From Rhodococcus maanshanensis NBRC 100610 (GTDB taxonomy: Bacteria; Actinomycetota; Actinomycetes; Mycobacteriales; Mycobacteriaceae), in assembly GCF_001894865.1 (NCBI RefSeq), contig NZ_BCXA01000024.1:1-64000 (forward strand): a stretch of 64,000 nucleotides of DNA, written 5' to 3'. The translations under genes and the position numbers were made by a program. This document shows positions 9,320 through 46,811 of this stretch, one piece after another. Under the pieces are notes generated by a model. It made no database searches, had not been told where the DNA came from, and saw nothing but the letters and a program-made list of their open reading frames with translations. Every line of letters begins with the position of its first letter. The stretch's first letter is position 1.

Positions 9320-10960
9320 TCAGGCTTCGGTGAGCTGACCGCCGTCCATCCGCCACCGGCGGGTGCTGCGCATCGTGTCCAGCATCCGCCGGTCGTGGGT
9401 GACCAGGAGCAGCGTGCCCTCGTACTCGTCCATCGCGCGTTCGAGCTGCTCGATGGCCGGCAGATCCAGGTGGTTGGTCGGCTCGTCGAGGACCAGCAGG
9501 TTCACCCCGCGGGCCTGGAGCAGAGCCAGTGCGGCCCTTGTCCGTTCGCCGGGCGAGAGCGAGCTCGCCGACCGCAGGACGTGCGCGCCGCGCAGGCCGA
9601 ACTTGGCGAGCAGGGTGCGCACCTCGGCGTCGGGCCAGTCGGGAACCTGGGCGCCGAACGCCGACGCGAGGGCTTCGTCGCCCTCGAACAGTCCACGGGC
9701 CTGGTCGACCTCACCGACCGCGACGCCGGACCCGAGCGCCGCGGTGCCCTCGTCGGGGACCAGCTTGCCGAGCAGCAGACGCAACAGTGTCGTCTTGCCC
9801 GAACCGTTCGGCCCGGTGATGAGAACCCGGTCGCCCCATTCGATCTGGGCGCTGATCGGCCCCAGTCGGAATGTTTCACGCTGAACAACCGCGCCGCTGA
9901 CGGTGGCCACCACGGTGCCGCTCCGCGGGGCGTCCGCGATCTGCATGCGCAGCTCCCACTCCTTGCGGGGCTCCTCGACAACCTCGAGCCGTTCGATCCG
10001 GCGCTGTGTCTGCCTGGCCTTCGCGGCCTGCTTCTCGGTGGACTCGGAGCGGGCCTTGCGTCCCATCTTGTCGGAGTCGGCGCCCTTGGCCTTCCGTCGT
10101 GCGTTGCGGACACCGTGCTCGAGCCAATTGCGCTGCATCTGAGCGCGATCCTCGAGACCGGCCTTGGTGTCGGCGTACTCCTCGTAGCGTTCCCGCGCAT
10201 GCTGCCGGGCGATGGCCCGCTCCGCGAGGTATGCCTCGTAGCCGCCGTCGTACACCGCGATCTGCTGCTGGGCGAGGTCGAGCTCGACGATCCCGGTCAC
10301 GGTACGTGCCAGGAACTCTCGATCATGGCTGACCACCACGATGCCGGTCCTGGCCTCCGCGACGAACCGTTCGAGCCGCTCGAGGCCGTCGAGATCCAGG
10401 TCGTTGGTCGGTTCGTCGAGCAGCAGCACGTCGTATCGGGAGAGCAGCAGCGAGGCCAGCCCAGCCCGTGCCGCCTGGCCGCCGGACAGCGCGGTCATCT
10501 CCGCGTCGAGCCCGACGCCGAGGCCGAGGTCGCTCAGCACCTTCTCGGCGCGCTCGGACAGGTCGGCGCCGCCGAGGCCGAGCCACCGCTCGAGCGCGTG
10601 CGAGTACCGGTCGTCACCGCCCTCCTCCGCGAGGGCCTCCGCGGCCGCGTTCATCTCCTCCTCGGCCCCGGTGACACCGGTGCGCCTGCCGAGGAATCCC
10701 TCGACACTCTCGCCGGCGAGGCGCTCGGGTTCCTGCGTGAGATAGCCCACGGTGGCGTGCGGCGGGCTGAGCGTCACCGCGCCCTCGATGTCGGCGGTGC
10801 TGTGGCCGGACAGGATGGAGAGCAGGGTCGACTTGCCCGCGCCGTTGGCGCCCACCAGCCCGATCACGTCGCCGGGGGCCACGACGAGGTCGAGCCCGGA
10901 GAAGAGGGTGCGCTCGCCGCGGGATGCGGACAGCCCGTCGGCGTGCAGTGTTGCGGTCAT
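9320..10960 (-). CDS. ABC-F family ATPase (duplicated NBD, no membrane domain)
   Basis: The 546-residue protein has two nucleotide-binding domains. The first has Walker A GANGAGKST, signature LSGGQAARAG and Walker B LLLDEPT; the second has GPNGSGKTT, LSPGERTRAA and LVLDEPT. They are joined by a charged helical linker at about residues 245-330. No TM segment is seen. ABC-F proteins act on ribosomes; some give resistance to antibiotics that bind the large subunit, others are housekeeping factors. Which group this one belongs to cannot be decided here. The start is the ATG at 10960, because the longer frame upstream lacks NBD similarity. Confidence 0.9.
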   Translation of the reverse strand: MTATLHADGLSASRGERTLFSGLDLVVAPGDVIGLVGANGAGKSTLLSILSGHSTADIEGAVTLSPPHATVGYLTQEPERLAGESVEGFLGRRTGVTGAEEEMNAAAEALAEEGGDDRYSHALERWLGLGGADLSERAEKVLSDLGLGVGLDAEMTALSGGQAARAGLASLLLSRYDVLLLDEPTNDLDLDGLERLERFVAEARTGIVVVSHDREFLARTVTGIVELDLAQQQIAVYDGGYEAYLAERAIARQHARERYEEYADTKAGLEDRAQMQRNWLEHGVRNARRKAKGADSDKMGRKARSESTEKQAAKARQTQRRIERLEVVEEPRKEWELRMQIADAPRSGTVVATVSGAVVQRETFRLGPISAQIEWGDRVLITGPNGSGKTTLLRLLLGKLVPDEGTAALGSGVAVGEVDQARGLFEGDEALASAFGAQVPDWPDAEVRTLLAKFGLRGAHVLRSASSLSPGERTRAALALLQARGVNLLVLDEPTNHLDLPAIEQLERAMDEYEGTLLLVTHDRRMLDTMRSTRRWRMDGGQLTEA

Positions 10961-11021
10961 GGCGACGATTGTCTCAGTCGCGCGGGGAACAAGGCTCCGA
11001 CGGCGGGGGTTGATCCGTTGC

Positions 11022-11873
11022 ATGACCTCTGTGAGCCCTGTCCCGAACGTGACGTTGAACGACGGCAACACCATCCCGCAGCTCGGCTTCGGGGTGTGGC
11101 AGGTGCCCGACGACGAGAGCTACACGGCCGTCACCAGCGCGTTGAGCATCGGCTACCGGAGCATCGACACCGCGGCCATCTACGGCAACGAGGTCGGTAC
11201 CGGCCGGGCGATCGCGGACTCCGGGGTGGCGCGGGACGAGTTGTTCATCACGACCAAGCTGTGGAACGGCGCAGGGGAGACCTGGACGGCGGACTCGGTT
11301 CGCCGCGAGTTCGACGCCTCCCTCGAGCGGCTCGGCCTCGACTACCTCGACCTGTACCTGATCCACTGGCCCCGCGCGGTGCGCGAGGACTACATCGCCA
11401 TCTGGCGTGCCTTCGCCGAGCTGAAGGCGGAGGGGCGAGTGCGCTCGATCGGTGTCTCCAACTTCCAGACCGCGCAGCTGAGCCGGATCATCGACGAAAC
11501 GTCCGTTGTGCCTGCGATCAACCAGATCGAGGTGCACCCGGACTTCGCGCAGCCGGAGCTGCGTGCCTTCCATGCCGACCACGGCATCGTCACCGAGGCG
11601 TGGTCGCCCCTCGGCCAGGGCGGTGCGCTGCTCGACGACCCGGCGCTGGCCCGGATCGCCGAGAAGCATCAGCGTTCCACCGCGCAGGTGGTGCTGCGAT
11701 GGCACCTCCAGATCGGCAACGTCGTCATCCCGAAGTCCGTGACGCCGTATCGGATCCGGCAGAACATCGAGGTGTTCGACTTCGAGCTCGATGCGGACGA
11801 CCTCGCCGCGATCGCCGGCCTCGACGTCGGTAACCGGCTGGGACCGGACCCGGACGAGTTCGACATGGGGTGA
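11022..11873 (+). CDS. Aldo/keto reductase
   Basis: The 283-residue protein has the full AKR (alpha/beta)8 signature set: GFGVWQVPDDE at the N-terminus, the catalytic Asp-Tyr-Lys-His residues in DTAAIYGNE, TKLWN and IHWP, and the C-terminal NADPH-binding segment IPKSVTPYRIRQN. The length is usual for the AKR5-like mycobacterial group. It reduces carbonyl compounds with NADPH in the cytoplasm. The ATG at 11022 places the first strand correctly; an earlier in-frame start would add 90 residues with no similarity. Confidence 0.92.
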   Translation: MTSVSPVPNVTLNDGNTIPQLGFGVWQVPDDESYTAVTSALSIGYRSIDTAAIYGNEVGTGRAIADSGVARDELFITTKLWNGAGETWTADSVRREFDASLERLGLDYLDLYLIHWPRAVREDYIAIWRAFAELKAEGRVRSIGVSNFQTAQLSRIIDETSVVPAINQIEVHPDFAQPELRAFHADHGIVTEAWSPLGQGGALLDDPALARIAEKHQRSTAQVVLRWHLQIGNVVIPKSVTPYRIRQNIEVFDFELDADDLAAIAGLDVGNRLGPDPDEFDMG

Positions 11874-11900
11874 TCCCCGCGGCGGCCCGGCGTCGGACGG

Positions 11901-12266
11901 TCAGAAGTTCATGGTCAGGTTGTGGCGACCGGATTTCATCCAGCCGGTGACCACGGCCCGCTCCGCCTGCTCGGCTGTTCCGCCGCACGCGACGACGAGT
12001 CGGAATCGCTCGGCGTCATAGGACGTGTACGAGTACTCCCGCATCCATCCGTGGCCGCCGACCGGGTTGTCGAGTTCCGCCCACCCGGATTCGCCCTTCT
12101 CCACGACCACCCACACCGCCACCGGTGGCGAATTCCGCGGACCCTGCTTGCAGCTCACCGTCCCGAAGACGGTCCGTGGGGTCAGCGCCTGTGCGGCCGG
12201 TGCCGCGAGGACGGCCGGCACAGCGATGAGGGCGGCGGCAGTGGCGGCAAGCTTGAGGAAACGCAT
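11901..12266 (-). CDS. Small secreted protein of unknown function
   Basis: The 121-residue protein has a clear Sec signal peptide (LKLAATAAALIAVPAVLA..AQA). The mature part of about 94 residues contains two Cys (VSCKQG and VVACGG) that could form a disulfide. The family is not recognised. It stands alone between the convergent aldo/keto reductase and the divergent membrane protein gene. Confidence 0.72.
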   Translation of the reverse strand: MRFLKLAATAAALIAVPAVLAAPAAQALTPRTVFGTVSCKQGPRNSPPVAVWVVVEKGESGWAELDNPVGGHGWMREYSYTSYDAERFRLVVACGGTAEQAERAVVTGWMKSGRHNLTMNF

Positions 12267-38018: not shown

Positions 38019-38047
38019 TGTGGTGCCCTCGGCAGGATTCGAACCTG
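38019..38047. repeat. attL: 29-bp copy of tRNA-Arg 3' end
   Basis: Identical over 29 bases to 46734-46762 (starts TGTGGTGCCCTCGG, ends ATTCGAACCTG). This copy is a fragment; the full tRNA is at the other end. It marks the left junction of the integrated element. Confidence 0.92.
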
Positions 38048-38073
38048 TTACTTTTAATCCCTCGTTCAGTGTG

Positions 38074-38108
38074 ACCACCAGGGAAAACATGGTGTTTTAC
38101 CTGGTGGT
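38074..38108. repeat. Long inverted repeat next to attL
   Basis: ACCACCAGG-g-AAAACA pairs with TGTTTT-a-CCTGGTGGT around a 3-base loop, giving 15 paired bases and one mismatch. It sits between the attL core and the arm-type repeats. It could be a terminator that blocks read-through from the host side, or part of the recombination site. Confidence 0.7.
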
Positions 38109-38131
38109 TGGACACTGTACCGTTGGCCTTG

Positions 38132-38182
38132 ATTAGGCACAAGTGGACACGTCGCCACACTGGTTTGGCACGTATTAGGCGC
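38132..38182. promoter_or_regulatory. Candidate left arm-type integrase sites
   Basis: GGCACGTATTAGGCGC at 38167-38182 is matched at the right end by GGCACGCATTAGGCGC (46674-46689). A related ATTAGGC lies at 38132-38138. GGACAC occurs about 22 bases before the long repeat at both ends (38145 and 46653). Such direct repeats flanking the core fit arm-binding sites of a tyrosine integrase. They also overlap the integrase promoter region. Confidence 0.6.
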
Positions 38183-38196
38183 AGGGTGGGGCAGGA

Positions 38197-39324
38197 ATGG
38201 CAAGCAATCGACCGAAACGCGGATTCGGTGCCCCCCGCAAACTGAAGTCTGGCCGCTGGCAAGCCCGCTACACCGGCCCTGACGGGCTGGCGCACAAGGC
38301 CGCAACGACGTTCGGGGCATATGACGATGCTGTCGCGTGGCTCGCTGGCGAGCGGCGCAGGATCGACCTGGACACCTGGACCCCGCCGGCGACACGAGAC
38401 CTTGACGCCGGCGTGCTGGGCAACCAACCGCCGGCCCTCACGTTGGCCGTCTATGCAGAGCGTTGGTTTGCTGAGACTGAGGGGCGTCACAAGCCGCGTA
38501 CCCGCGCGTTGAACCGGGGCTACCTCGACAATGTGATCCTTCCTGAACTGGGCGCAGTGTCCGTTACCGCGCTGACGGTTCAACAGGTGCGGGCCTGGTT
38601 TGCCGGCCTTGAGTCCTTCCCGACGCGGAACTCCAATGCCTACTCGCTACTCCGAACGATCCTCAACCAGGCACTTGATGACGAACTGATCGCGGCCAAC
38701 CCTTGCCGAGTGAAGCGGGCAGCGGTAAAGCGTCGTGTAGTTGAGCCAATCGCGTTGACCGCAAGTGAGATTCGCGCCATGGCTGACGCTATGCCGGAAC
38801 GGTGGCGGGCACTTATCCTGGTGGCCGGCTTCTCCGGGTTGCGATGGGGTGAGCTTGTGGCGCTCAGGCGGTCCGATTTCGTGCTCAAAGCTGACGACTG
38901 CTCGGTCACGGTGTCGCGCGCCGTGGTGCGAATGAAGGGTGAGTTTGTCATCGGCGCGCCCAAGTCTCGGGCAGCGCTGCGAACCGTCCCGTTGCCGTCA
39001 GCGTTGCGTCTGATCATTGCGGCGCACATCGAGGAGTTCGCCCTACCTGGGCGGGCTGGCTTGGTGTTCCCCTCGGTGTCGGGTCAGGTGGTGCACGACA
39101 ACTCGGTGCGGCCGGCGTTCAAGCGGGAAGCTAAGAAGATTGGGCACCCGGCCCTGAGGTTCCACGACTTGCGGCACTCTGCGGCAACTTTGTTCGCTCA
39201 GGCCGGCGCGACGCTGGCCGATCACATGATGTTGATGGGGCACACGTCGTCAGCGATGAGTGCCCGGTATACGCACAGCACGGCGGCACGGAACAGGGCA
39301 CTAGTTGAGGGGCTTTGGGAGTAG
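38197..39324 (+). CDS. int: Tyrosine-type site-specific integrase
   Basis: The 375-residue protein has an N-terminal arm-binding region (KSGRWQARYTGPDG), a SAM-like core-binding domain at about residues 85-165 and a catalytic domain. The catalytic set is visible: Arg in GFSGLRWGEL, Lys in the beta-hairpin (GAPKSRAALR), HDLRHSAAT, GHTSSAMSARYTHS with the nucleophile Tyr. It should integrate and excise the element at the tRNA-Arg 3' end. It lies 150 bases from attL. Confidence 0.95.
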   Translation: MASNRPKRGFGAPRKLKSGRWQARYTGPDGLAHKAATTFGAYDDAVAWLAGERRRIDLDTWTPPATRDLDAGVLGNQPPALTLAVYAERWFAETEGRHKPRTRALNRGYLDNVILPELGAVSVTALTVQQVRAWFAGLESFPTRNSNAYSLLRTILNQALDDELIAANPCRVKRAAVKRRVVEPIALTASEIRAMADAMPERWRALILVAGFSGLRWGELVALRRSDFVLKADDCSVTVSRAVVRMKGEFVIGAPKSRAALRTVPLPSALRLIIAAHIEEFALPGRAGLVFPSVSGQVVHDNSVRPAFKREAKKIGHPALRFHDLRHSAATLFAQAGATLADHMMLMGHTSSAMSARYTHSTAARNRALVEGLWE

Positions 39325-39644
39325 GCCGGCTGTGATCGGCGCTGGTCAAATCGGCAATATCCACGGGTTTGCCGGTATGACTTGCATTACATTATTCCTT
39401 GCGCATCCCTGACCATCCTTGATCAAGCTTGGACATTCTTGCGCAATTTTGCGCGCTGAACTGTTCGCGCCCAATGCAATTCGTGTGGTTATCTGAAATG
39501 TGCGTGATAGCGTGTGAATTGAGCGGACAAGATACGCCACTGGCCGGCATGAGACCTAACTAGGTAGCCGGGTGGGTACGTCGCCATTCCTTCGCCCTCG
39601 CAAATCAGCGGGGCCGCATCGACGCACACAGAAGGCGTACACAC
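39325..39644. other. 320-bp non-coding control region of the element
   Basis: I see no convincing gene here. The stretch is clearly AT-richer than its surroundings. It contains TTGCGCA-type repeats at 39399-39405, 39439-39445 (part of palindrome TTGCGCAA) and a variant TTGCGCG at 39449-39455. It lies between int and the HTH genes, where an early promoter, operators or an origin would be expected. No repressor gene is seen on the opposite strand. Confidence 0.5.
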
Positions 39645-39821
39645 ATGTCTAAGGCACGACTGTCCACAATCGCTGAGGCCGCAGAGACCTTGAGCGTCAG
39701 TACCCGCACAATCCGCCGTTACATCGCGGCTGGCCGATTCACGGCATACCGGGTTGGCCCCCGACTTATCCGCGTAGACCTCTCAGAACTGGATACCGCG
39801 CTGCGTCGCATGGGCGCGTGA
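39645..39821 (+). CDS. Small HTH protein, excisionase-like
   Basis: The 58-residue protein has one MerR/HTH_17-type helix-turn-helix spanning nearly the whole length (STIAEAAETLSVSTRTIRRY then IAAGRFTAYRVG). This is the usual form of excisionase/recombination directionality factors and small phage regulators. ATG at 39645, no strong ribosome-binding sequence. It is followed after 3 bases by a second HTH gene. Confidence 0.8.
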   Translation: MSKARLSTIAEAAETLSVSTRTIRRYIAAGRFTAYRVGPRLIRVDLSELDTALRRMGA

Positions 39822-39824
39822 GCT

Positions 39825-40097
39825 GTGTACACGGGATCAATTCCTGACTACCTCCTGCCTGAGGAGATGAGGTCATTCAAGCCTCTATGGCTGAGGGAAG
39901 AGGACGCCCTCAAGGTTATTGACCGTGGCGCAAGCACCTTGAGGCGCTGGCGGTACCGGGGCGAGGTTAAGGCGCAAAAGTCATTCGGTCGCTGGCTGTA
40001 CGAGCGCAGCTCTCTTGAGGCGTGCGAGCGGGAACAGGTGAGGCGCTACGAAGAACGCCCTTTCCCTGGTCGTAGTCGTAAGCAAGACAATTCTTAG
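39825..40097 (+). CDS. Second small HTH-like protein
   Basis: The 90-residue protein has a winged-HTH/MerR-like pattern (WLREEDALKVIDRGASTLRRW then RYRGEVKAQKSFGRWLYERS) and a basic tail. GTG at 39825, or a later ATG at 39867. The pattern is like HTH_17 excisionases, so either this or the preceding gene may be the excision factor and the other a regulator. Confidence 0.65.
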   Translation: MYTGSIPDYLLPEEMRSFKPLWLREEDALKVIDRGASTLRRWRYRGEVKAQKSFGRWLYERSSLEACEREQVRRYEERPFPGRSRKQDNS

Positions 40098-40111
40098 AAT
40101 GGAAATTAGAG

Positions 40112-40321
40112 ATGCAATCAAGCCGAGTCGGCTACCAATTTCGCATCACCAACTACGTTCACGAGGAAGGGCCGCGCCTGCGGCTGCGGAACGTGAACTC
40201 GAAGCGCGTTGATGTATCCCTGACGCCAGACGAGGCATACCAACTACAGGACTCCCTTAGTGACTGCCTGGACGAGCACGAGCGTAACGAACTGCGGAAC
40301 TGCAAGGGGGCCGGCAGGTGA
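40112..40321 (+). CDS. Small protein of unknown function
   Basis: The 69-residue protein has an N-terminal beta-rich half (YQFRITNY; RLRLRNVNSKRVDVSL) and an acidic helix (TPDEAYQLQDSLSDCLDEHE). It is not recognised. The helical pattern 'LTxxEAxxLxxxLxxxL' is similar to that of the reverse-strand gene at 45792-45950. It overlaps the next gene by 4 bases (GTGA). Confidence 0.6.
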   Translation: MQSSRVGYQFRITNYVHEEGPRLRLRNVNSKRVDVSLTPDEAYQLQDSLSDCLDEHERNELRNCKGAGR

Positions 40322-40506
40322 AGCAGTCACACGACTTCATCGAGGTACTGATGAAAGAGTCCAGGATGACGCGAAAGCAAGTGCTCAATTGCCTCGATGA
40401 ACTGGAATCGCACAACCTGGTTATGCCGCTAACGCCCGACAGGGATTGGAGCGTAGGCGTGTGGATGCCGACTCTCAACAGCTTCTCGGGAGTCTCGTTT
40501 GGCTGA
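40318..40506 (+). CDS. Small winged-helix-like protein
   Basis: The 62-residue protein contains FIEVLMKESRMTRKQVLNCL and LESHNLVMPL, the pattern of a short wHTH used in phage replication modules. GTG start coupled to the previous stop. Its end overlaps the likely TTG start (40499) of the next gene. Confidence 0.55.
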   Translation: MKQSHDFIEVLMKESRMTRKQVLNCLDELESHNLVMPLTPDRDWSVGVWMPTLNSFSGVSFG

Positions 40507-41131
40507 CAAGTTCGTAGTAATCCCAGACGACATATTCGATATCGACATGTCCTCGCCGGCCTCCGACTGTACGCATTGATGACCAAGTACGCGGACAGCC
40601 ATACGCGGGAAGCATGGCCCTCGCGGGCAACTCTCGCTCAGGGCCTGGGCCTCAGCAGACCGGCAAGCGTTGACCAGTACGTCAAAGAGCTTGAGGCGGC
40701 AGGCCTGATCAAGGTTCAGGCGCGGTGGAAAGACCGGGACGGCAACCACTCATTTGAGAAGTCCGCCACTCACAAAGAGCGCGGTTCGAGCCTATACAGT
40801 GCTCAGGGGGTGGTACGTCAAACCGCACAAGGGTAGTACGCCGGAGCGCACAAGGGTAGTACCGCAGACCGAACAAGAACTAGAACCAATTAACTATCAA
40901 CAGGGGCCGGCACCCATTCCTGACGACTGGACGCCAAACGAAGCACATCGACAGCTAGCCAAGTCCAAGGGCCTTGACGTGGAAGCGGTCGCAGCGAAGT
41001 TCAACAGCTGGGCAATCAATGGTGGCAAGAAGCTTGTCAGTTGGGATGCTCGGTTCACGGCATGGCTTCACGATGAGAAGCGCAGGCCTCAAGTCGCAGG
41101 CAGCACCGGCGGCAGGCTATGGCAGGAGTAA
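40499..41131 (+). pseudogene. Frame-disrupted replication-initiator-like wHTH protein
   Basis: Three blocks of one protein lie in different frames. Block 1 (TTG 40499, after GGGAG) reads ADKFVVIPDDIFDIDMSSPA and stops at 40579. Block 2, in another frame from about 40561, reads LRLYALMTKYADSH..AWPSRATLAQGLGLSRP...YVKELEAAGLIKVQARW, a winged helix, and stops at 40836. Block 3 returns to the first frame to 41131 (DDWTPNEAHRQLAKSKGLDV...WDARFTAWLHDE), a C-terminal motif typical of phage replication proteins. Around 40805-40875 are three imperfect repeats of 24, 23 and 23 bases with G-runs, where frame is lost. It is either a decayed gene or one affected by homopolymer sequencing error. Confidence 0.72.
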
Positions 41132-41135
41132 CTAC

Positions 41136-41282
41136 ATGGCGAAGTGGGTATCTCTGCCAATCAAGCCGGGGATCACACCTAAGCGTGAAAGGTACGGCGG
41201 CAGCGACCGCTACCTGATCAAAAGGGCTTCGCGTAAGGCAATCCCTCAAGTGGAGCCTGAAAGTCCCTCAGTGTGTAAATGA
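41136..41282 (+). CDS. Short basic protein of unknown function
   Basis: A 48-residue protein, Lys/Arg-rich (KPGITPKRERYGGSDRYLIK). A GGAG ribosome-binding sequence lies 8 bases upstream of the ATG at 41136. The family is not recognised. It lies directly after the disrupted replication-type gene. Confidence 0.5.
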   Translation: MAKWVSLPIKPGITPKRERYGGSDRYLIKRASRKAIPQVEPESPSVCK

Positions 41283-41309
41283 GCGGTCGACATTGGGGGA
41301 GGGGGTGAA

Positions 41310-41429
41310 ATGTCACTACGAACTAGGCGACCGGCCCACTTCTGGCGGGGAGTGATCCTCTCCCCCCGGAGGGCATACCCCATCACGCGCGAGGGAAGGC
41401 ACCGATTAATCATGAATTGCGAGGGTTGA
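41310..41429 (+). CDS. Possible 39-residue basic peptide
   Basis: ATG 41310 follows an unusually long purine run (GGGGGAGGGGG) that could act as a ribosome-binding site. The peptide is Arg-rich (SLRTRRPAHFWRGVILSPRR). It ends 3 bases before the next start. It may be a real gene or a leader; nothing further supports it. Confidence 0.35.
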   Translation: MSLRTRRPAHFWRGVILSPRRAYPITREGRHRLIMNCEG

Positions 41430-41432
41430 AGC

Positions 41433-41705
41433 ATGGAAAGAGTGAGTGTCACTCTGTTTGACCGGATTGAGGCGCTGCGGGCTGCGCTGGCTGTCCACGA
41501 TGGGGACCGGGAGGAGTTGCATCGGGTGATCCTTGATTGCGGCGATCGGTACGGCGGAATTGATCGGCTGATCTACGCAATGGCTCTTGAGCTGGATTTT
41601 GCGTATGGGTGCGGCTTTGGCGACAGCGGGCCGGATCAGATCAACAGTCTGATTGAGCTGCACCAGGTCGCGCTTGATGTTGCGGCGCGGGGTGATGTTC
41701 GGTGA
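41433..41705 (+). CDS. Small acidic helical protein before portal
   Basis: The 90-residue protein is predicted all-helical and acidic (FDRIEALRAALAVHDGDREELHRVIL). It overlaps the portal gene by 4 bases (GTGA). The position before portal is where a small terminase subunit would sit in phages, but no HTH or terminase motif is seen. Unassigned. Confidence 0.6.
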   Translation: MERVSVTLFDRIEALRAALAVHDGDREELHRVILDCGDRYGGIDRLIYAMALELDFAYGCGFGDSGPDQINSLIELHQVALDVAARGDVR

Positions 41706-42973
41706 AGTTGCCGATCAAGTTTGGCGGTGCGGGCGGCGGCAAGCTGCGTTCAGTCCGCATGGATGAGTCCGGATTCATGGTGGCGTCAGACGACGGGACG
41801 GTGATGGACCGGACTTCTGAGCAGTTGTGGGCTGAACAGCCGTATCTGCGAACTGTCGTCACCTTCCTTGCCCGCAACGTGGCACAGCTCGGGTTGCAGG
41901 CATTCAAGCGTGACGCTGAGGGTTCACGTGAGCGACTGCGGGACCATCCCCTGGCTGCAATGCTGAAACGCCCGAACGAGGATCAGACCGGCTATGAGCT
42001 GCTGTATGCGCTCGTTGCGGATCTGGCGCTGTTCGATGTGGCATACCTGCTGGTTGAGGACCGGGCCGCCGACGGGGCCGGCGTGAAGTTGCGGAACATT
42101 CCGAACGGCTGGGTCAAGGGAACCGAGGACTCGACACCATTTCGTGCTGGCGCGTACTTGGTGCAGATGAACGGCGCTGAGGGCGAGCCCGTCAAGGTTG
42201 CCGCCGAGAACATGCTCGTGTTCCACGGATGGAACCCTGCTGATACGCGTATGGGCATGAGTCCCGTAAAGGCGCTCAACGCGACGCTGCGCGAACAGAT
42301 CCACGCACAGACGTTCCGTGAACAGCTATGGGAACGCGGAGGGCGAGTGGGCACATACCTGACGCGTCCCAAGGATGCGCCTGACTGGTCCAACGAGGGC
42401 CGTACTCGGTTCAAGAGTTCATGGGCTGCGGCATGGTCCGGCAGCCGTGGCAGCAAGGCCGGCGGCACACCAGTGCTTGAAGATGGAATGGAACTAAAGC
42501 GTGTTGGTTTCAGTGCCAAGGAAGAGGAATACGTAGAGGCGTCCAAGCTGGCGCTGACGACGGTTGCCGCTGTGTACCACGTCAACCCGACGATGATTGG
42601 CGTACTGGATAACGCCAACTACAGCAACGTGCGTGAGTTCCGGCGGATGCTCTACGGCGACACGCTGGGGCCGATCATGGCGATGATCGAGGACCGGCTG
42701 AACGAGTTCCTGGTGCCACGATTCGCGGACGTTGAGGGCGCATACGTCGAGTTCAACCTAGGTGAGAAGTTGCAGGGTTCGTTTGAGGAACAGGCCGCCG
42801 TGCTCAGTGCGGCAACGGGCGTGCCGTACATGACGCCGAACGAGGCCAGGGCCAAGCTCAACCTTCCCGCTGTCGCGGGCGGTGACGAGCTGGCAAGGCC
42901 GCTGAACATGGCGACGCCGGAACAGGTAGCCGCCGGCAACAACGGGGAAGAGGTGGCGGCTGATGCTGCATAA
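41702..42973 (+). CDS. HK97-family phage portal protein
   Basis: The 423-residue protein shows portal hallmarks: PYLRTVVTFLARNVAQLGL, LLVEDRAADGAGVKLRNIP, FHGWNPADTRMGMSPVKALN, VYHVNPTMIGVLDNANYSNVREFRRMLYGDTLGP and the late MTPNEARAKLNLP segment. Twelve copies would form the DNA channel at a capsid vertex. Complete in length. It overlaps the protease-capsid gene by 11 bases. Confidence 0.93.
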   Translation: MKLPIKFGGAGGGKLRSVRMDESGFMVASDDGTVMDRTSEQLWAEQPYLRTVVTFLARNVAQLGLQAFKRDAEGSRERLRDHPLAAMLKRPNEDQTGYELLYALVADLALFDVAYLLVEDRAADGAGVKLRNIPNGWVKGTEDSTPFRAGAYLVQMNGAEGEPVKVAAENMLVFHGWNPADTRMGMSPVKALNATLREQIHAQTFREQLWERGGRVGTYLTRPKDAPDWSNEGRTRFKSSWAAAWSGSRGSKAGGTPVLEDGMELKRVGFSAKEEEYVEASKLALTTVAAVYHVNPTMIGVLDNANYSNVREFRRMLYGDTLGPIMAMIEDRLNEFLVPRFADVEGAYVEFNLGEKLQGSFEEQAAVLSAATGVPYMTPNEARAKLNLPAVAGGDELARPLNMATPEQVAAGNNGEEVAADAA

Positions 42974-44675
42974 GGACCATGACGGTGCGATGTTGAAGGC
43001 CGGCCCCGATGACGGTTTGGAAGAGGGCCAGTTTCTCGCCTACGCAAGCGTGTTCGGCAATCGGGACTCGTACGGCGATGTTGTCGAGCCGGGCGCGTTC
43101 ACCAAGTCGCTGACCGATTGGCGGGCCAAGGGCGCACCTATCCCGCTGCTGTTCGGTCACAACATGGAAGATCCCGATTTCAATATCGGGCACGTCGTCA
43201 TGGCGGAAGAGGACGGGCACGGCCTCAAGGTGCTCGGGCAGCTGGACCTTGAGTCACCCAAGGGCCGGCAGGTGCATCGGATGCTCAAGGGCCGGCGCGT
43301 GGGCAACCTGTCGTTTGCTTATGACGTGCTCGACTCCAAGCCTGCCAAGAGTGCGGAACTGGGCGAGTACGTGAGCTTGAAAAGCCTTGCTCTTCACGAA
43401 ATTAGCGTGGTGACCGTGGGAGCGAATCGCTCAACGGCGGTCCTCGCAGTCAAGGGTGGCGACGCCACCAACGTAACCAAGGATGAGGTTGTCATGAGTG
43501 TTTCTCTCAAGGATCAGCGGGCCGGCGTCGTCACCAAGGCGCAGGCAATCGTTGATGGTGCCAAGGCTGAGGGCGTTGAGCTGACCGCCGAACAGGCCGC
43601 CGAGCTTGACGGCCTGGTCGATCAGGTCAAGGCGTTTGACGAGCAGATCAAGGCGTCTCTCGACTCTCAGGCGCTTGTCGCGGCAGTCGAAGCATTGGGT
43701 AAGGGCATTGAGCCGGCAATGGATCAGGAAAAGGGCAACATGAACGTGAGCACCAAGGGCCGGTTTCTGGGGCTGACTGGCAAGTCGGGCGCTGAGGCGG
43801 CAACCAAGCTGGCGGGGCAGATGCTCGGATCTGCCGGTGGCGTCAAGTCGCTGACCGCTGCGGGTAGCTCGGTTACCGGCGTTCCGCTGGTCGCTCAGTC
43901 GCCCATCGAACTTGACCGCGTACCGACCAGCGTCCTTGAGGTGCTTGGTGTGGTCACTCATTCCACGCCTGAGTACACGTACCTGCGTCAGACGGTCCGT
44001 ACCAACAACGCGGCACCGTGGGCCAGCGGCAACAAGCCTGAGAGCAGGTACGCCGTTGAAAGTGTGCCCGGCAAGCTGACGGTGATTCCGCATGTCAGCG
44101 AGGGCATCGACAGGTACACCCTGATCGACAACGCGGCACTTGGTGACTTCCTCAAGGACGAAATGATCGACGGCCTGATGCACGCCGTTGAGGCTCAGGT
44201 TCTCAGCGGCAACGGTACGGGCGTCAACATGAGGGGCGTCCTCAACACGTCGGGCGTTCTCTCGCAGGCGTTCACCACTGACCTCGTGACGACAACCCGC
44301 AAGGCGGTTACTGCCCTTGAGACCGGCGGACGCAAGCCGGGCGTCTTCGTCCTCAGCCCGACTGACTGGGAGGCGCTGGAACTGGCGCGCAACACCAGCG
44401 GCGCGTTCGACCTGGCGCACTCGGCTGTTGATCGTTCGGCGCGCAAGCTGCATGGTGTGCCGGTCGTCGTGTCCACTGCGCTGCCGGCCAAGGTCGCAAT
44501 GCTGATGGACCTGGACGCGGTGAAGGTCGATACCGATACTCACGGCCTGGTCGTTGAGTGGGGCGTCAAGGGCGATGACTTCGGCCAGAACGCTAGCCGG
44601 CTGTTGGTTGAGGGCCGGTTTGGCGTGTCGGTGCTGCGTCCGACTGGTGTTGTGAAGATCGCAACGGCGGCGTAG
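42963..44675 (+). CDS. Fused HK97 prohead protease and major capsid protein
   Basis: The 570-residue protein joins two head proteins. Residues 1-170 form the prohead protease (AYASVFGNRDSYGDVVEPGAF; His in LLFGHN; Ser in NLSFAYDV; ALHEISVVTVGANRST). Residues about 178-265 form a helical delta/scaffold-like region, and 270-570 the HK97 gp5 capsid fold (PLVAQSPIELDRVPTSVLEVLGV; NGTGVNMRGVLNTSG; VLSPTDWEALELA; LLVEGRFGVSVLRPTGVVK). An internal ATG at 43494 with GGATGAGG 5 bases before it starts a normal-looking stand-alone capsid protein (MSVSLKDQRAGVVTKAQ); another at 43740 has AGGAAAAGGG. Confidence 0.93.
   Translation: MLHKDHDGAMLKAGPDDGLEEGQFLAYASVFGNRDSYGDVVEPGAFTKSLTDWRAKGAPIPLLFGHNMEDPDFNIGHVVMAEEDGHGLKVLGQLDLESPKGRQVHRMLKGRRVGNLSFAYDVLDSKPAKSAELGEYVSLKSLALHEISVVTVGANRSTAVLAVKGGDATNVTKDEVVMSVSLKDQRAGVVTKAQAIVDGAKAEGVELTAEQAAELDGLVDQVKAFDEQIKASLDSQALVAAVEALGKGIEPAMDQEKGNMNVSTKGRFLGLTGKSGAEAATKLAGQMLGSAGGVKSLTAAGSSVTGVPLVAQSPIELDRVPTSVLEVLGVVTHSTPEYTYLRQTVRTNNAAPWASGNKPESRYAVESVPGKLTVIPHVSEGIDRYTLIDNAALGDFLKDEMIDGLMHAVEAQVLSGNGTGVNMRGVLNTSGVLSQAFTTDLVTTTRKAVTALETGGRKPGVFVLSPTDWEALELARNTSGAFDLAHSAVDRSARKLHGVPVVVSTALPAKVAMLMDLDAVKVDTDTHGLVVEWGVKGDDFGQNASRLLVEGRFGVSVLRPTGVVKIATAA
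44576..44626. repeat. 51-bp direct repeat, copy 1 (inside capsid gene 3' end)
   Basis: Identical to 45302-45352 over 51 bases (begins TGACTTCGGCCAGAACGC, ends GGTTTGGCGT). This copy is in the coding frame of the capsid C-terminus and looks original. Confidence 0.93.
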
Positions 44676-45273
44676 GCAGTTGAGGTGCGGGCGGTCGGTA
44701 CAGCTCGACTGCCCGTCCACGGAGGTCAGACACAGCCTGGCCCAACTTGGTGATGCTCTCGATCATCTGGCGAACCTTGTTGGCGATAGCTTTGCTGTCG
44801 GAGTCGAGAACGTCGGCGAGCGTGACGCACTCCAAGAACGCTTCACCTATTGCTTCAAGGCAGCGGCGGGTCTCTACGTCAGTTGCAAGAAGGTCGGCTG
44901 TGATCAGGGCGCGATCGAAGTCCGCTGTGAGAGTGAGGACGTTCGAGTAGAACTCCGCGATGCTGACTACCTTCGTCAAGGACTCCGATTCATGCGGTGC
45001 GTTGGCGACCTGAGCCATTTGGGCGCAGATGCTGGTCAGGTTCGGCATCCAGAGCGTCGAGACATGCAGGACCTCCACAATCGAACTTCGCTGCTGGTTG
45101 CGTACTCGCTCAAGTTGTTCGGCGTTGAACCGAGATTCTGTTGACGATTGCGAATCTGCAAACTGGCGGGCTGAGCGACGCAACGTGAGCCAGTTAGCCA
45201 CTGCTGACACCACGACAGCGATTGAGGCCACAGAGGTTGTGGCAAACGCACCCCATCCGGGCGTGTAGTACAT
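44593..45273 (-). CDS. Cargo gene: membrane-anchored coiled-coil-type protein
   Basis: The 226-residue protein has one N-terminal TM helix (TTSVASIAVVVSAVANWLTL), then a long helical region (SARQFADSQSSTESRFNAEQLERVRNQ; several amphipathic helices) and a Pro-rich tail. The last ~27 residues are encoded by the antisense of the capsid gene 3' end. No family is recognised. It is on the opposite strand to the head genes and is bracketed by the 51-bp repeats. ATG 45273 or GTG 45282. A superinfection-exclusion or defence role is a guess based on location and shape. Confidence 0.68.
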   Translation of the reverse strand: MYYTPGWGAFATTSVASIAVVVSAVANWLTLRRSARQFADSQSSTESRFNAEQLERVRNQQRSSIVEVLHVSTLWMPNLTSICAQMAQVANAPHESESLTKVVSIAEFYSNVLTLTADFDRALITADLLATDVETRRCLEAIGEAFLECVTLADVLDSDSKAIANKVRQMIESITKLGQAVSDLRGRAVELYRPPAPQLPTPPLRSSQHQSDAAPTRQTGPQPTAG

Positions 45274-45301
45274 ACTGACCACTTTCTCATGCAGGCAGCG
45301 C

Positions 45302-45352
45302 TGACTTCGGCCAGAACGCTAGCCGGCTGTTGGTTGAGGGCCGGTTTGGCGT
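45302..45352. repeat. 51-bp direct repeat, copy 2 (capsid fragment)
   Basis: Perfect copy of 44576-44626, located upstream of the cargo gene start and just before a terminator. It is not part of an intact capsid gene here; sequence after GGCGT differs from copy 1. Confidence 0.93.
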
Positions 45353-45364
45353 CTGGATGAAACG

Positions 45365-45411
45365 AAAGTGGCCCGCCACTGCCCTTGATTTGGGTTGTGG
45401 CGGGCCATTTT
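45365..45411. terminator. Bidirectional rho-independent terminator
   Basis: TGGCCCGCCAC (45369-45379) pairs with GTGGCGGGCCA (45397-45407), with a further CCC/GGG inside the loop. It is flanked by AAA on the left and TTTT on the right, so it can end transcription from both sides: the head operon from the left and the 45419-45703 gene from the right. Confidence 0.88.
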
Positions 45412-45418
45412 CCGTGTA

Positions 45419-45703
45419 TCAGGCCGGAATCGGGTGGATGGAGTCGATATCGGGTGCGATCGTCACCAGCCCTCCGATAGGCATCACAATCGGAACCGAG
45501 TTGCCCGCAACAAAGAGCGTCAAGGTGGTGACCGTTCTCTCAGCTACAGGGAACAGGGATTCATGCTCGACCTTGGTGAGGACGCCTGTGACGACGGTTT
45601 CGCGCACTACGCCGTCCGCCACCTCGGTGCCGATGGATGCCTTGAGGTACTGCCCGACGTGCTCGGCGCTGAGATCGTCGGTTGCAATTTCTGTGGTTGC
45701 CAT
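45419..45703 (-). CDS. Small protein of unknown function (element)
   Basis: The 94-residue protein is predicted beta-rich in the second half (TLTLFVAGNSVPIVMPIGGLVTI) after an N-terminal ATTEIATDDLSAEHVGQYL segment. The ATG at 45703 is preferred to an upstream extension rich in Cys. Ends at the terminator. No family recognised. Confidence 0.55.
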   Translation of the reverse strand: MATTEIATDDLSAEHVGQYLKASIGTEVADGVVRETVVTGVLTKVEHESLFPVAERTVTTLTLFVAGNSVPIVMPIGGLVTIAPDIDSIHPIPA

Positions 45704-45734
45704 GCCGGGCAAACTACACGGCAGGACCGACAGG

Positions 45735-45768
45735 ACAGCCCCACACCTGACCATCGGTGCGGGGCTGT
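45735..45768. terminator. Hairpin between two reverse-strand element genes
   Basis: ACAGCCCC-a-CACC pairs with GGTG-c-GGGGCTGT around an 8-base loop (45735-45768). It lies just downstream of the 45792-45950 gene in its reading direction. No T-tract. Likely terminator. Confidence 0.65.
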
Positions 45769-45791
45769 TCGTGTCTCAGCGTGCGACTCAG

Positions 45792-45950
45792 CTAGCCGTT
45801 CAATAGCTCGCCAAGGATCGAGTGCAGGTGCTCAGCCTGCGCCCGCGTGAGGTCAACGGACAGGTCGCGGCTGAGAGTAAGGATCACGTCGTTACCGTCC
45901 TCGCGTGCAGACGGATCGAACGCGGAAGTGTTGCTGTGATTGATGAGCAT
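45792..45950 (-). CDS. Small acidic protein (element)
   Basis: A 52-residue protein, ATG at 45950 with an AAGGA ribosome-binding sequence 4 bases upstream. Content: NDVILTLSRDLSVDLTRAQAEHLHSIL. The pattern of a short beta segment plus a helix 'LTxxxAxxLxxxL' resembles the 40112-40321 product. Function unknown. Confidence 0.6.
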   Translation of the reverse strand: MLINHSNTSAFDPSAREDGNDVILTLSRDLSVDLTRAQAEHLHSILGELLNG

Positions 45951-45962
45951 TTGTTCCTTCAT

Positions 45963-46279
45963 AGTTGATTGGGTACGTCTAGAAACCAGCGGAGCACCCA
46001 CGGGTGCCGGTGTCGTAAACCCCACCCCGGAACAACCCACGAACCATGCCCCGTTATCGCGTCACGGCAACGCCAGTAGCCCACCCGCTAGAAGCGGACA
46101 GGCTGGCGCTGACCCGACCCAAGGTGTGCACCCCGCTAGGTCGAGCGCCTGTGCCGGTTCACAGGATTACGAACACCGGGAATCGCTGGTTGGCGTCGGG
46201 CGACTCGGAAGACGACGAGCGGGAAGGGACCCACTCCGCACCCCCACGGCGTTGATTCCGCGGAGGACGGGGCAGGTCG
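45963..46279. other. 317-bp stretch without a convincing gene
   Basis: No frame here has a good start signal and protein-like composition. A short hairpin GCACCC/GGGTGC is at 45994-46007. The region separates two small reverse-strand genes and may hold the promoter for the 45792-45950 gene. Confidence 0.4.
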
Positions 46280-46435
46280 CTACGCGGGGTAGAGCCGTTC
46301 GGCGGTGGCGATGGTGCCCAGTAGTTCGTCCGGGTGATCGATGGCAAGCATCGACAGCAGGCGGAACGCGAGGTGTCCGGTCGGGTCAGCGCCAAGGTGG
46401 GCGCCCAGGGTGTCGAGGACTTCGCTGGTGGTCAT
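46280..46435 (-). CDS. 51-residue protein coupled to a small membrane protein
   Basis: The protein is predicted helical and soluble (TSEVLDTLGAHLGADPTGHL; LLSMLAIDHPDELLGTIATA). Its ATG at 46435 overlaps the stop of the upstream 49-residue membrane protein (ATGA), so both are made together. No family recognised. Confidence 0.6.
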   Translation of the reverse strand: MTTSEVLDTLGAHLGADPTGHLAFRLLSMLAIDHPDELLGTIATAERLYPA

Positions 46436-46581
46436 GCGACGTACCAGCCGAGGGCGAACGCGAGGCGCAGAACGCTATTCGTGGCGACATAGGCCACAGG
46501 TAGGACCAGGATTGCGGCGGTAACTTCACGCGCGCTGTGCGACCTCTTGGGGTGCGTGGATAGACTTCGGGAACGGTGCAT
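46432..46581 (-). CDS. 49-residue single-TM protein (element right end)
   Basis: Basic N-terminus (MHRSRSLSTHPKRSHSAREV) then one hydrophobic helix (TAAILVLPVAYVATNSVLRLAFALGWYVA). An AAGAG ribosome-binding sequence lies before the ATG. Forms a bicistron with the 51-residue protein. Could be a small toxin, holin-like or membrane-sensor peptide; this is not shown. Confidence 0.58.
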   Translation of the reverse strand: MHRSRSLSTHPKRSHSAREVTAAILVLPVAYVATNSVLRLAFALGWYVA

Positions 46582-46652
46582 GGCGGGTCTCTTCCGTCGT
46601 GGTCCGAGGCCCTGGCTGGTGTTGGTAGCACCTGCTAGGGCCGTTCTTGTTT

Positions 46653-46689
46653 GGACACACGTACGGGGGATTCGGCACGCATTAGGCGC
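46653..46689. promoter_or_regulatory. Candidate right arm-type integrase site
   Basis: GGACAC (46653) followed 21 bases later by GGCACGCATTAGGCGC (46674-46689), the same layout and orientation as at the left end with one difference in the 16-bp repeat. It lies 45 bases from the attR core. Confidence 0.6.
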
Positions 46690-46733
46690 GATGCCAGTTT
46701 TGGTAGCTAAAAATAGCACCTGACCTGCGAATA

Positions 46734-46762
46734 TGTGGTGCCCTCGGCAGGATTCGAACCTG
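46734..46762. repeat. attR: 29-bp core within tRNA-Arg
   Basis: Perfect match to 38019-38047. It covers the T-arm, acceptor 3' strand and CCA end of the tRNA gene, so integration keeps the tRNA intact at this end. Confidence 0.92.
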
Positions 46763-46811
46763 CGACCTACCCTTTAGGAGAGGGTTGCTCTATCCCCTGA
46801 GCTACGAGGGC
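46736..46811 (-). tRNA. tRNA-Arg (anticodon CCT)
   Basis: The complement reads GCCCTCGTAGCTCAGGGG... through a 7-base anticodon loop CTCCTAA (anticodon CCT) on an ACCCT/AGGGT stem, then GGTTCGAATCC in the T-arm and GAGGGCACCA at the 3' end. The acceptor stem GCCCTCG/CGAGGGC is complete and CCA is encoded. It decodes AGG codons and serves as the attachment site. Confidence 0.96.

What the first reader, a model, noticed from the sequence alone, without database searches (positions are those of the whole stretch)
38019..46762. Compact 8.7 kb capsid-encoding satellite-like element in tRNA-Arg
Seen: perfect 29-bp att repeats, a full tyrosine integrase, HTH genes, portal and protease-capsid genes, but no large or small terminase, tail, lysis or repressor gene. 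Known: capsid-forming phage-inducible islands and the phiRv1/phiRv2 elements of M. tuberculosis carry head genes in about 10 kb and depend on a helper phage. Inferred: this is a phage satellite that makes its own capsid and takes packaging ATPase and tail from a helper. Having a portal but no terminase is notable.
Basis: partly seen in the sequence, partly recalled or inferred. Interest (0 to 1): 0.85.

Follow-up and report, generated by a model that had tools for sequence, protein, structure and literature searches.

The report
Phage satellite with borrowed packaging site
An 8.7-kb parasite-of-a-virus sits in a bacterial tRNA gene, carries its own shell and DNA-entry-ring genes plus a copy of a phage's DNA-packaging signal, but no packaging motor or tail, so it probably takes those from a helper phage.

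Summary
In detail: perfect 29-bp repeats bound an 8,715-bp, low-GC insertion in tRNA-Arg(cct), and a sister species has the empty site. It carries tyrosine integrase, HTH/Xis-like proteins, HK97-type portal and one fused protease-capsid gene; I found no terminase, connector, tail or lysis gene. New here: a cos site at about 41327-41390, upstream of the head genes. It matches the physical left ends of Gordonia phages (subfamily Ruthgordonvirinae). A matrix from five such phages alone scores it 31 bits (next best in the window 11; best of ten simulated 128-kb sequences 18.7). The closest phage portals (57-60%) belong to the same phages. Prescottella defluvii carries a sister element with the same core order, also without TerL, but with a small terminase, a serine integrase and a RelA/SpoT cargo gene. 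Portal and capsid are 75-76% identical with dN/dS 0.17-0.20, which argues against a fresh deletion. All 17 other portal places found in 301 family genomes have TerL adjacent. Best reading: a satellite that makes its own head and is cut and filled by a helper's terminase at the mimicked cos. Caveats: the replication gene is frame-broken and no resident helper was found, so this copy may be defective.

The parts
38019..38047 (.). attL, 29-bp repeat
   Evidence: exact repeat; joined flanks match the empty site of a sister species
38197..39324 (+). tyrosine integrase, 375 aa
   Evidence: PF00589 2.9e-19; phrog_1 2.5e-60
39645..39821 (+). Xis/AlpA-like HTH_17 protein, 58 aa
   Evidence: PF12728 4.7e-10; phrog_66 excisionase 6.5e-9
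39825..40097 (+). second HTH protein, 90 aa, shared with the Prescottella element
   Evidence: phrog_20602 4.1e-8; 63% over 76 aa to L021
40112..40321 (+). small protein g4, 69 aa
   Evidence: 46% over 39 aa to L021
40504..41131 (+). phage-type replication initiator, reading frame interrupted; 3 x 23-nt tandem repeats at 40808-40876
   Evidence: two ORFs in different frames match positions 26-76 and 173-255 of the same family phrog_1032; the L021 homologue is one ORF over 16-264; repeats
41136..41282 (+). small protein g8, 48 aa
   Evidence: 67% over 36 aa to L021; no match in phage records
41327..41390 (+). cos site (core about 41327-41368, then CCCCATC block)
41433..41705 (+). g9, 90 aa, sits where TerL sits in full phages, overlaps portal start
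   Evidence: 38% to the L021 homologue at the same place; predicted four-helix fold, mean pLDDT only 67
41702..42973 (+). HK97-family portal protein, 423 aa
   Evidence: PF04860 7.5e-73; TIGR01537 4.3e-41
42963..44675 (+). prohead protease - major capsid protein fusion, 570 aa
   Evidence: PF04586 and PF05065; TIGR01543, TIGR01554
44593..45282 (-). 229-aa protein of unknown function, probable cargo, inserted behind the capsid gene
   Evidence: flanked by 62-nt copies of the capsid 3' end, 44572-44633 and 45298-45359; no convincing family, no match in phages or plasmids
45419..46719 (-). four short leftward ORFs (111, 82, 51, 95 aa) of unknown function
   Evidence: no convincing family (not each ORF in each library)
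46734..46762 (.). attR, 29-bp repeat in the 3' end of tRNA-Arg(cct)

Best explanation
An integrative phage satellite of actinobacteria, in a lineage distinct from full phages. Shown by sequence: site-specific integration in tRNA-Arg with a tyrosine integrase; a head module of portal plus fused protease-capsid; a cos site of the Ruthgordonvirinae type upstream of that module, in the same orientation as in the phages; no TerL, TerS, connector, tail or lysis gene detected. Inferred: on infection by a helper of that type, the excised satellite DNA is amplified. Satellite capsid, protease and portal build a small head. The helper's TerS/TerL recognise the satellite cos, dock on the satellite portal (close to the helper's own) and fill the head with satellite DNA. 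The helper's connectors and tail bind the portal, and helper lysis releases the particles. The minus-strand genes behind the capsid look like exchangeable cargo (a RelA/SpoT protein holds that place in the sister element).
For: cos: blastn of window:41318-41412 against 50,697 phage records gave 10 records at E up to 10; all 7 Gordonia records are hit within record bases 3-42, the physical left end (the other 3 are Microbacterium phages, internal, 23 nt). A 42-nt matrix from five phages, without the window, scores 41327-41368 at 31.0 bits; next best in the window 11.2; maximum over ten simulated 128-kb sequences 18.7. A prophage not used for the matrix, L035, scores 35.6 about 1.3 kb upstream of its TerL. 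Portal: best phage relatives are the same group of Gordonia phages, 57-60%. Sister element in Prescottella defluvii with the same core order and no TerL; portal NG86 dN/dS 0.17, capsid 0.20; the two portals form a 100/100 clade on a 0.39 stem. Of 27 portal-bearing loci tested, 24 have TerL; the three without are the window, the sister and L062, a 4.5-kb contig that begins inside its portal. Empty attB in sister species G021.
Against: The replication gene is interrupted in frame, so this copy may be unable to replicate by itself. No helper prophage marker in the genome, although a helper may come from outside. Nothing shows excision, particles or transfer. The window lacks the TerS that the sister keeps. 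The sister's cos alone (16.6 bits) is below the best simulated score, and none of nine portal-less capsid loci scores above it. Small genes are less constrained than the head genes: g9 dN/dS 0.47, g8 0.63. The portal-bearing TerL-less type rests on two genomes: of the other 8 portal places in the order-wide search I examined 6 and all 6 have TerL; G659 and G718 were not examined.
Confidence: 0.72

Rival explanations
1. A remnant: a once complete temperate phage that lost TerL, connectors, tail and lysis genes by deletion and is decaying in the chromosome.
For: Replication gene frame-broken; capsid 3' end partly duplicated; no resident helper found; single isolate.
Against: The same TerL-less order with 75-76% identical portal and capsid in another genus, with low dN/dS; portal clade on a long stem; intact att repeats and integrase; cos kept although its terminase is gone; different integrase and cargo around the same core.
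Confidence: 0.15
2. A helper-interference island: its capsid and portal mix with helper subunits to redirect head size or poison assembly, as the CP-homologue Ccm does in cos-type SaPIs, rather than building a complete satellite head.
For: cos-type SaPIs combine cos packaging with a capsid homologue that redirects head shape (PMC8569155, start of abstract seen in a listing). Capsid-bearing relatives without portal exist.
Against: Portal, protease and capsid are all present and conserved. The 25 best-ranked phage matches of the whole fusion protein (91-98% covered) are only 37-39% identical, although 21 of 683 records reach 60-80% over parts; co-assembly with a helper capsid seems less likely than separate assembly (inference).
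Confidence: 0.1
3. A satellite that the helper packages into helper heads by cos alone, the satellite head genes being idle.
For: cos is present; PICMI satellites do without capsid-remodelling genes (PMC10803314, start of abstract in a listing).
Against: Purifying selection on portal and capsid.
Confidence: 0.03

Closest known systems
Capsid-encoding candidate PICIs of Mycobacterium, including phiRv1/phiRv2 (PMC10654092, passages read)
   Same: Small integrated element with integrase and major capsid gene, tRNA or other sites, some with replication genes; helper-dependent by inference. Ten integrase-plus-capsid loci without portal or TerL turned up here.
   Different: Those ten loci have no portal by HMM. 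The present element adds a portal and an identified cos that names a helper group. phiRv1/phiRv2 themselves were not compared by sequence here.
Capsid-forming PICIs (cf-PICI; definition as quoted in PMC10690885, passages read)
   Same: Own capsid, protease and portal; tails from a helper.
   Different: cf-PICIs also encode connectors and their own packaging set (TerL, TerS, HNH); none found here. This element would need the helper's terminase too.
MulchRoom/MiniFlayer Streptomyces satellites (PMC10690885, passages read)
   Same: Actinobacterial satellites with portal and capsid genes.
   Different: They keep TerL, TerS, scaffold and adaptor, have direct terminal repeats, and no primase-like gene.
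cos-type SaPIs such as SaPIbov5 (PMC8569155, start of abstract in a listing)
   Same: cos packaging; a capsid-protein homologue.
   Different: The SaPI remodels helper capsids; here portal, protease and capsid are all encoded. Staphylococcus against actinobacteria.
Gordonia phages of Ruthgordonvirinae (Vendetta, Schmidt, TinaLin, Dardanus, Catfish)
   Same: cos sequence and orientation, portal 57-60% identical.
   Different: Full 43-47-kb phages. Vendetta (annotation seen) has TerS-like gene and TerL between cos and portal, separate protease and capsid genes, connectors, tail and endolysin.

Membership tests
Phage satellite (candidate PICI: integrase plus major capsid gene) | integrase with att boundaries | tested here: met
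Phage satellite (candidate PICI: integrase plus major capsid gene) | major capsid gene without a complete set of phage genes | tested here: met
Phage satellite (candidate PICI: integrase plus major capsid gene) | mobilised by a helper phage | not testable with these tools
   only the cos match bears on it
cf-PICI | capsid, protease and portal encoded | tested here: met
cf-PICI | own terminase large and small subunits and HNH | tested here: not met
cf-PICI | head-tail connectors | tested here: not met
   no family hits among 16 ORFs; adaptor HMM silent
phiRv1-type element | capsid and protease genes in about 10 kb | tested here: met
   feature recalled
phiRv1-type element | serine integrase | tested here: not met
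   tyrosine integrase; the Prescottella sister has a serine one. phiRv1 feature from a reference title in PMC10654092; phiRv2 not tested
cos-type satellite | cos sequence of a helper phage | tested here: met
   that the phage is a helper is inferred
Intact temperate phage | TerL, connectors, tail, lysis genes | tested here: not met
Deleted prophage remnant | relaxed selection or recent deletion | tested here: not met
   dN/dS 0.17 and 0.20 and a sister with the same gap; but the replication gene is broken

The most novel reading that the evidence does not exclude
A further division of labour between satellite and helper: the satellite supplies the whole head shell and the portal, while the helper supplies the packaging motor, recruited by a copied cos and by a portal kept compatible with the helper's TerL, plus connectors and tail. 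g9, which stands in the place of TerL before the portal in both members, could be a dedicated adaptor for the helper terminase.
Probability: 0.35. Interest if true: 0.78.

Novelty: new variant of a known kind. Interest (0 to 1): 0.6.

Why it matters
Capsid-encoding small elements are described in actinobacteria, including phiRv1/phiRv2 of the tuberculosis group, but PMC10654092 (passages read) says that induction of such elements by phages has not been demonstrated. A cos copied from a cultivated phage subfamily turns 'needs some helper' into a named, testable helper group, and a portal without a motor tests how specific the portal-terminase contact is. The cos matrix also offers a way to find other satellites and pair them with helpers: it flags a 6.8-kb Rhodococcus pyridinivorans unit as well.

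Tried and rejected
Scan of genome contigs with the capsid alone found no relative; with the two-portal alignment only the Prescottella contig. IMG/VR scans gave 10 and 50 loci; I looked at the neighbourhood of 32 loci, L043-L074, of which L043 is the genome contig, not at L075-L103. The Prescottella element reappears there (L044, L054, L152). The seven other IMG/VR portals at 51% or more (L045-L051) all have TerL (six by tblastn; L049 by HMM). g8 and the 229-aa protein have no match in phage records, the latter none in plasmids. PADLOC finds no defence family among the six window proteins given. DNA folding of the cos region is not more stable than shuffles (z 0.52). Promoter and terminator scans are no better than shuffles. 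Hidden terminase in the small ORFs: rejected; the weak phrog_57 hit of the Xis-like protein is read as shared HTH. Helper prophage in the same genome: not found, but phrog_2 is not the best family for this TerL type (Vendetta TerL: phrog_9 2.4e-77, phrog_2 1.8e-11; L151 TerL: phrog_2 only 2.1e-5), so a divergent TerL could be missed. The genome searches scored only a few candidates a genome (for example 5 of 10, 3 of 22), so their tallies are lower bounds. The first TerL HMM held one wrong-frame row from L028; it was rebuilt with 15 clean rows and a wider test set, which is the one cited. The portal tree used 28 chosen portals; the most divergent ones (L036-L038, L148) and several IMG/VR ones were left out. 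Structure prediction of g9 gave a low-confidence four-helix model (mean pLDDT 67), not searched further.
Full report
WHAT IS THERE. The element runs from 38019 to 46762, between identical 29-bp repeats 8,715 bp apart. The right repeat is the 3' end of an intact tRNA-Arg(cct) on the minus strand, 46736-46811. GC is 0.606 inside and 0.699 outside. When the two flanks are joined, the 645-nt empty site aligns over positions 2-645 at 86% with contig C5 of G021, one of the 5 other species of the genus searched; in the other 4 the best match spans only 74-84 nt, essentially the tRNA. So the unit is a real insertion.

GENES. Rightward: tyrosine integrase, Xis-like HTH, second HTH, small genes, an interrupted replication initiator, g8, g9, HK97 portal (PF04860, 7.5e-73) and one 570-aa protease-capsid fusion (PF04586 plus PF05065). 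Leftward, behind the capsid: a 229-aa protein and four short ORFs without a convincing family. Sixteen ORFs were scanned in Pfam, PHROGs or both, ten proteins (six of the window) in NCBIfam; no credible terminase, connector, tail or lysis gene appeared.

TERL TEST. HMMs of TerL (15 rows), portal (11) and head-tail adaptor (10) were run on 40 stretches. TerL rings in 25, of which 15 were not in its training set. Portal rings in 27. Of those 27, 24 have TerL; the three without are the window element, the Prescottella element, and L062, a 4.5-kb contig that begins inside its portal and so says nothing. The adaptor is silent in the window and in the Prescottella element.

THE cos SITE. blastn of window:41318-41412 against the phage collection gave 10 records at E up to 10. 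Seven are Gordonia phages (Schmidt, TinaLin and Dardanus twice each, Banquo once); all seven are hit within record bases 3-42, the left physical end. Schmidt has E 6e-3 (37 nt, 86.5%), the others only 0.9 to 3, so the position, not the E-value, carries the weight. The other three records are Microbacterium phages matched internally over 23 nt (E 0.9). Schmidt, TinaLin, Dardanus, Vendetta, Catfish and Gsput1 are Ruthgordonvirinae; Banquo's taxonomy was not looked up. Setting genome end beside genome start for five phages shows similar sequence on both sides of the cut, strongest in TCCTCTCCCCCCG and CCCCATC. Gsput1, whose record notes 5' extended cos termini at 1-16, starts about 28 nt further left as deposited and lacks the CTCTCCCCCC run. 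A 42-nt matrix from the five phages, without the window, gives 31.0 bits at 41327-41368; the next best place in the window, either strand, scores 11.2; ten simulated 128-kb sequences reach at most 18.7. The five phages belong to one subfamily, so they are not independent. In the same other loci were scanned. Three exceed 18.7: L035 (a family prophage, 35.6, about 1.3 kb upstream of its TerL), L151 (23.8) and L040 (23.4). The other 16 TerL-bearing prophage loci and nine portal-less capsid loci do not, so this cos type is confined to a subset.

A pattern drawn from window and phages occurs in 1 of 401 family genomes, namely here (by construction), with none for the reversed control. It occurs in 12 IMG/VR contigs. 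Seven have it at base 5-6; six of those have the lengths of known Gordonia phages, and the seventh, L176, has TerS and TerL 0.7 and 1.1 kb on. Of the 5 internal ones, 3 have TerS and TerL downstream, at about 0.1 to 5 kb (L170, L172, L174), and 2 (L167, L175) show none in the stretch held. In Vendetta the order is cos - other genes - TerS-like gene - TerL - portal; here it is cos - g9 - portal.

THE SISTER. Among 301 family genomes the portal search gave 19 places in 18 genomes (few candidates scored per genome). The seventeen other than the window and G091 all have TerL next to the portal (12 by tblastn; all 17 by HMM, though ten of these are training rows). G091 is Prescottella defluvii (NZ_JPOC01000053). 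Its element keeps hth2 - g4 - replication gene - g8 - cos-like block - TerS (PF23931, 1.1e-14) - g9 - portal - fused capsid, with no TerL. Around that core the modules differ: a serine recombinase and a RelA/SpoT-domain gene (PF04607 1.8e-19; PADLOC PDC-S33 3.8e-11). The window genome shows no TerS by PF23931. Portal and capsid are 76% and 75% identical, with NG86 dN/dS 0.17 and 0.20; g9 (0.47), g8 (0.63), hth2 (0.34) and the replication fragment (0.33) are less constrained. In a 28-row portal tree the two form a 100/100 clade with a stem of 0.39, next to the Ruthgordonvirinae and two family prophages (support 84/84). Since TerL is missing at the same place in both, the loss most simply predates their split, and the low dN/dS covers time after it. 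This is the main argument against a fresh remnant.

WIDER FAMILY. A class-wide search with the capsid matched in 20 of 394 genomes, 21 loci besides the window by my count of its rows; I fetched 12 of them. Ten have an integrase-like gene within 10 kb but neither portal nor TerL (L133-L140, L142, L147; element ends not mapped); L141 and L146 have TerL. L142 has two tape-measure-like pieces and L138 one short piece, so these may be deleted prophages. Two of the ten, L133 and L134, have the capsid in open frames of 585 and 600 aa that also match the protease part. These resemble the candidate PICIs defined in PMC10654092 (passages read) as integrase plus capsid. A 13,649-bp circular record of Rhodococcus pyridinivorans (L040) is two copies, 99.8% alike, of a 6.8-kb unit with integrase, capsid, TerS and a cos of this type. 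L151, from a 42-kb IMG/VR contig, has the same cos core about 0.4 kb upstream of a phrog_9 TerL but an unrelated portal (phrog_113). So cos type goes with the terminase rather than with the portal.

MECHANISM. Shown: integration site, gene content, cos, selection on head genes. Inferred: the helper's TerS/TerL cut at the satellite cos and fill a satellite-made head through the satellite portal, which is nearest among phage records to portals of the same phages (57-60%); connectors, tail and lysis come from the helper. That a small, perhaps T=3, head would fit 8.7 kb is an estimate from the HK97 volume, recalled and not tested.

AGAINST. The replication initiator is split: pieces in different frames match positions 26-76 and 173-255 of phrog_1032, while the sister has one ORF over 16-264. 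One break lies near three 23-nt tandem repeats (40808-40876). This could be decay or an assembly error, and it lowers the chance that this copy moves today. No resident helper was found by PF04860, phrog_2 or PF10145; phrog_2 is not the best family for this TerL type. The sister's cos alone scores 16.6, below the best simulated value; its weight comes from near-identity with the window over the same block and from the adjacent TerS.

NOVELTY. Capsid-encoding satellites are known. Listings of the paper library (one search showed 15 of 96) showed no description of a satellite with portal, capsid and cos but no terminase. The library lacks most subscription papers, and two papers I asked for by id, meant as the SatelliteFinder and the cf-PICI papers, were not held. 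I file it as a new variant of a known kind.

Noticed in passing
window 44572-44633 and 45298-45359: A 62-nt piece of the capsid 3' end (94% alike) is repeated behind the 229-aa minus-strand gene, just before an inverted repeat at 45364-45412; it looks as if that gene was inserted between capsid and terminator. The sister element has its RelA/SpoT gene at the same place.
   Followed up: partly
L040 (NZ_CP096036.1, Rhodococcus pyridinivorans Y6): A circular 13.6-kb 'plasmid' that is a tandem dimer of a 6.8-kb integrase-capsid-TerS-cos unit, perhaps a satellite circle caught outside the chromosome.
   Followed up: partly
L151 (IMGVR_UViG_2906783305_000001): 42-kb viral contig with the same cos core as the window but an unrelated portal family, next to a phrog_9 TerL.
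   Followed up: partly
window 40808-40876: Three 23-nt tandem repeats inside the replication gene region, iteron-like; period not a multiple of three, at one of the frame breaks.
   Followed up: no
L041 (pWTY27, Streptomyces sp. Y27), 10642-12102: Orphan major capsid gene in a 14-kb plasmid with TraA/TraB transfer genes.
   Followed up: no
L134, about 11242-11283 minus: Portal-less capsid locus with a cos-like block (12.4 bits, not significant alone) followed by the same AACTTTTT run as in the Prescottella element.
   Followed up: no
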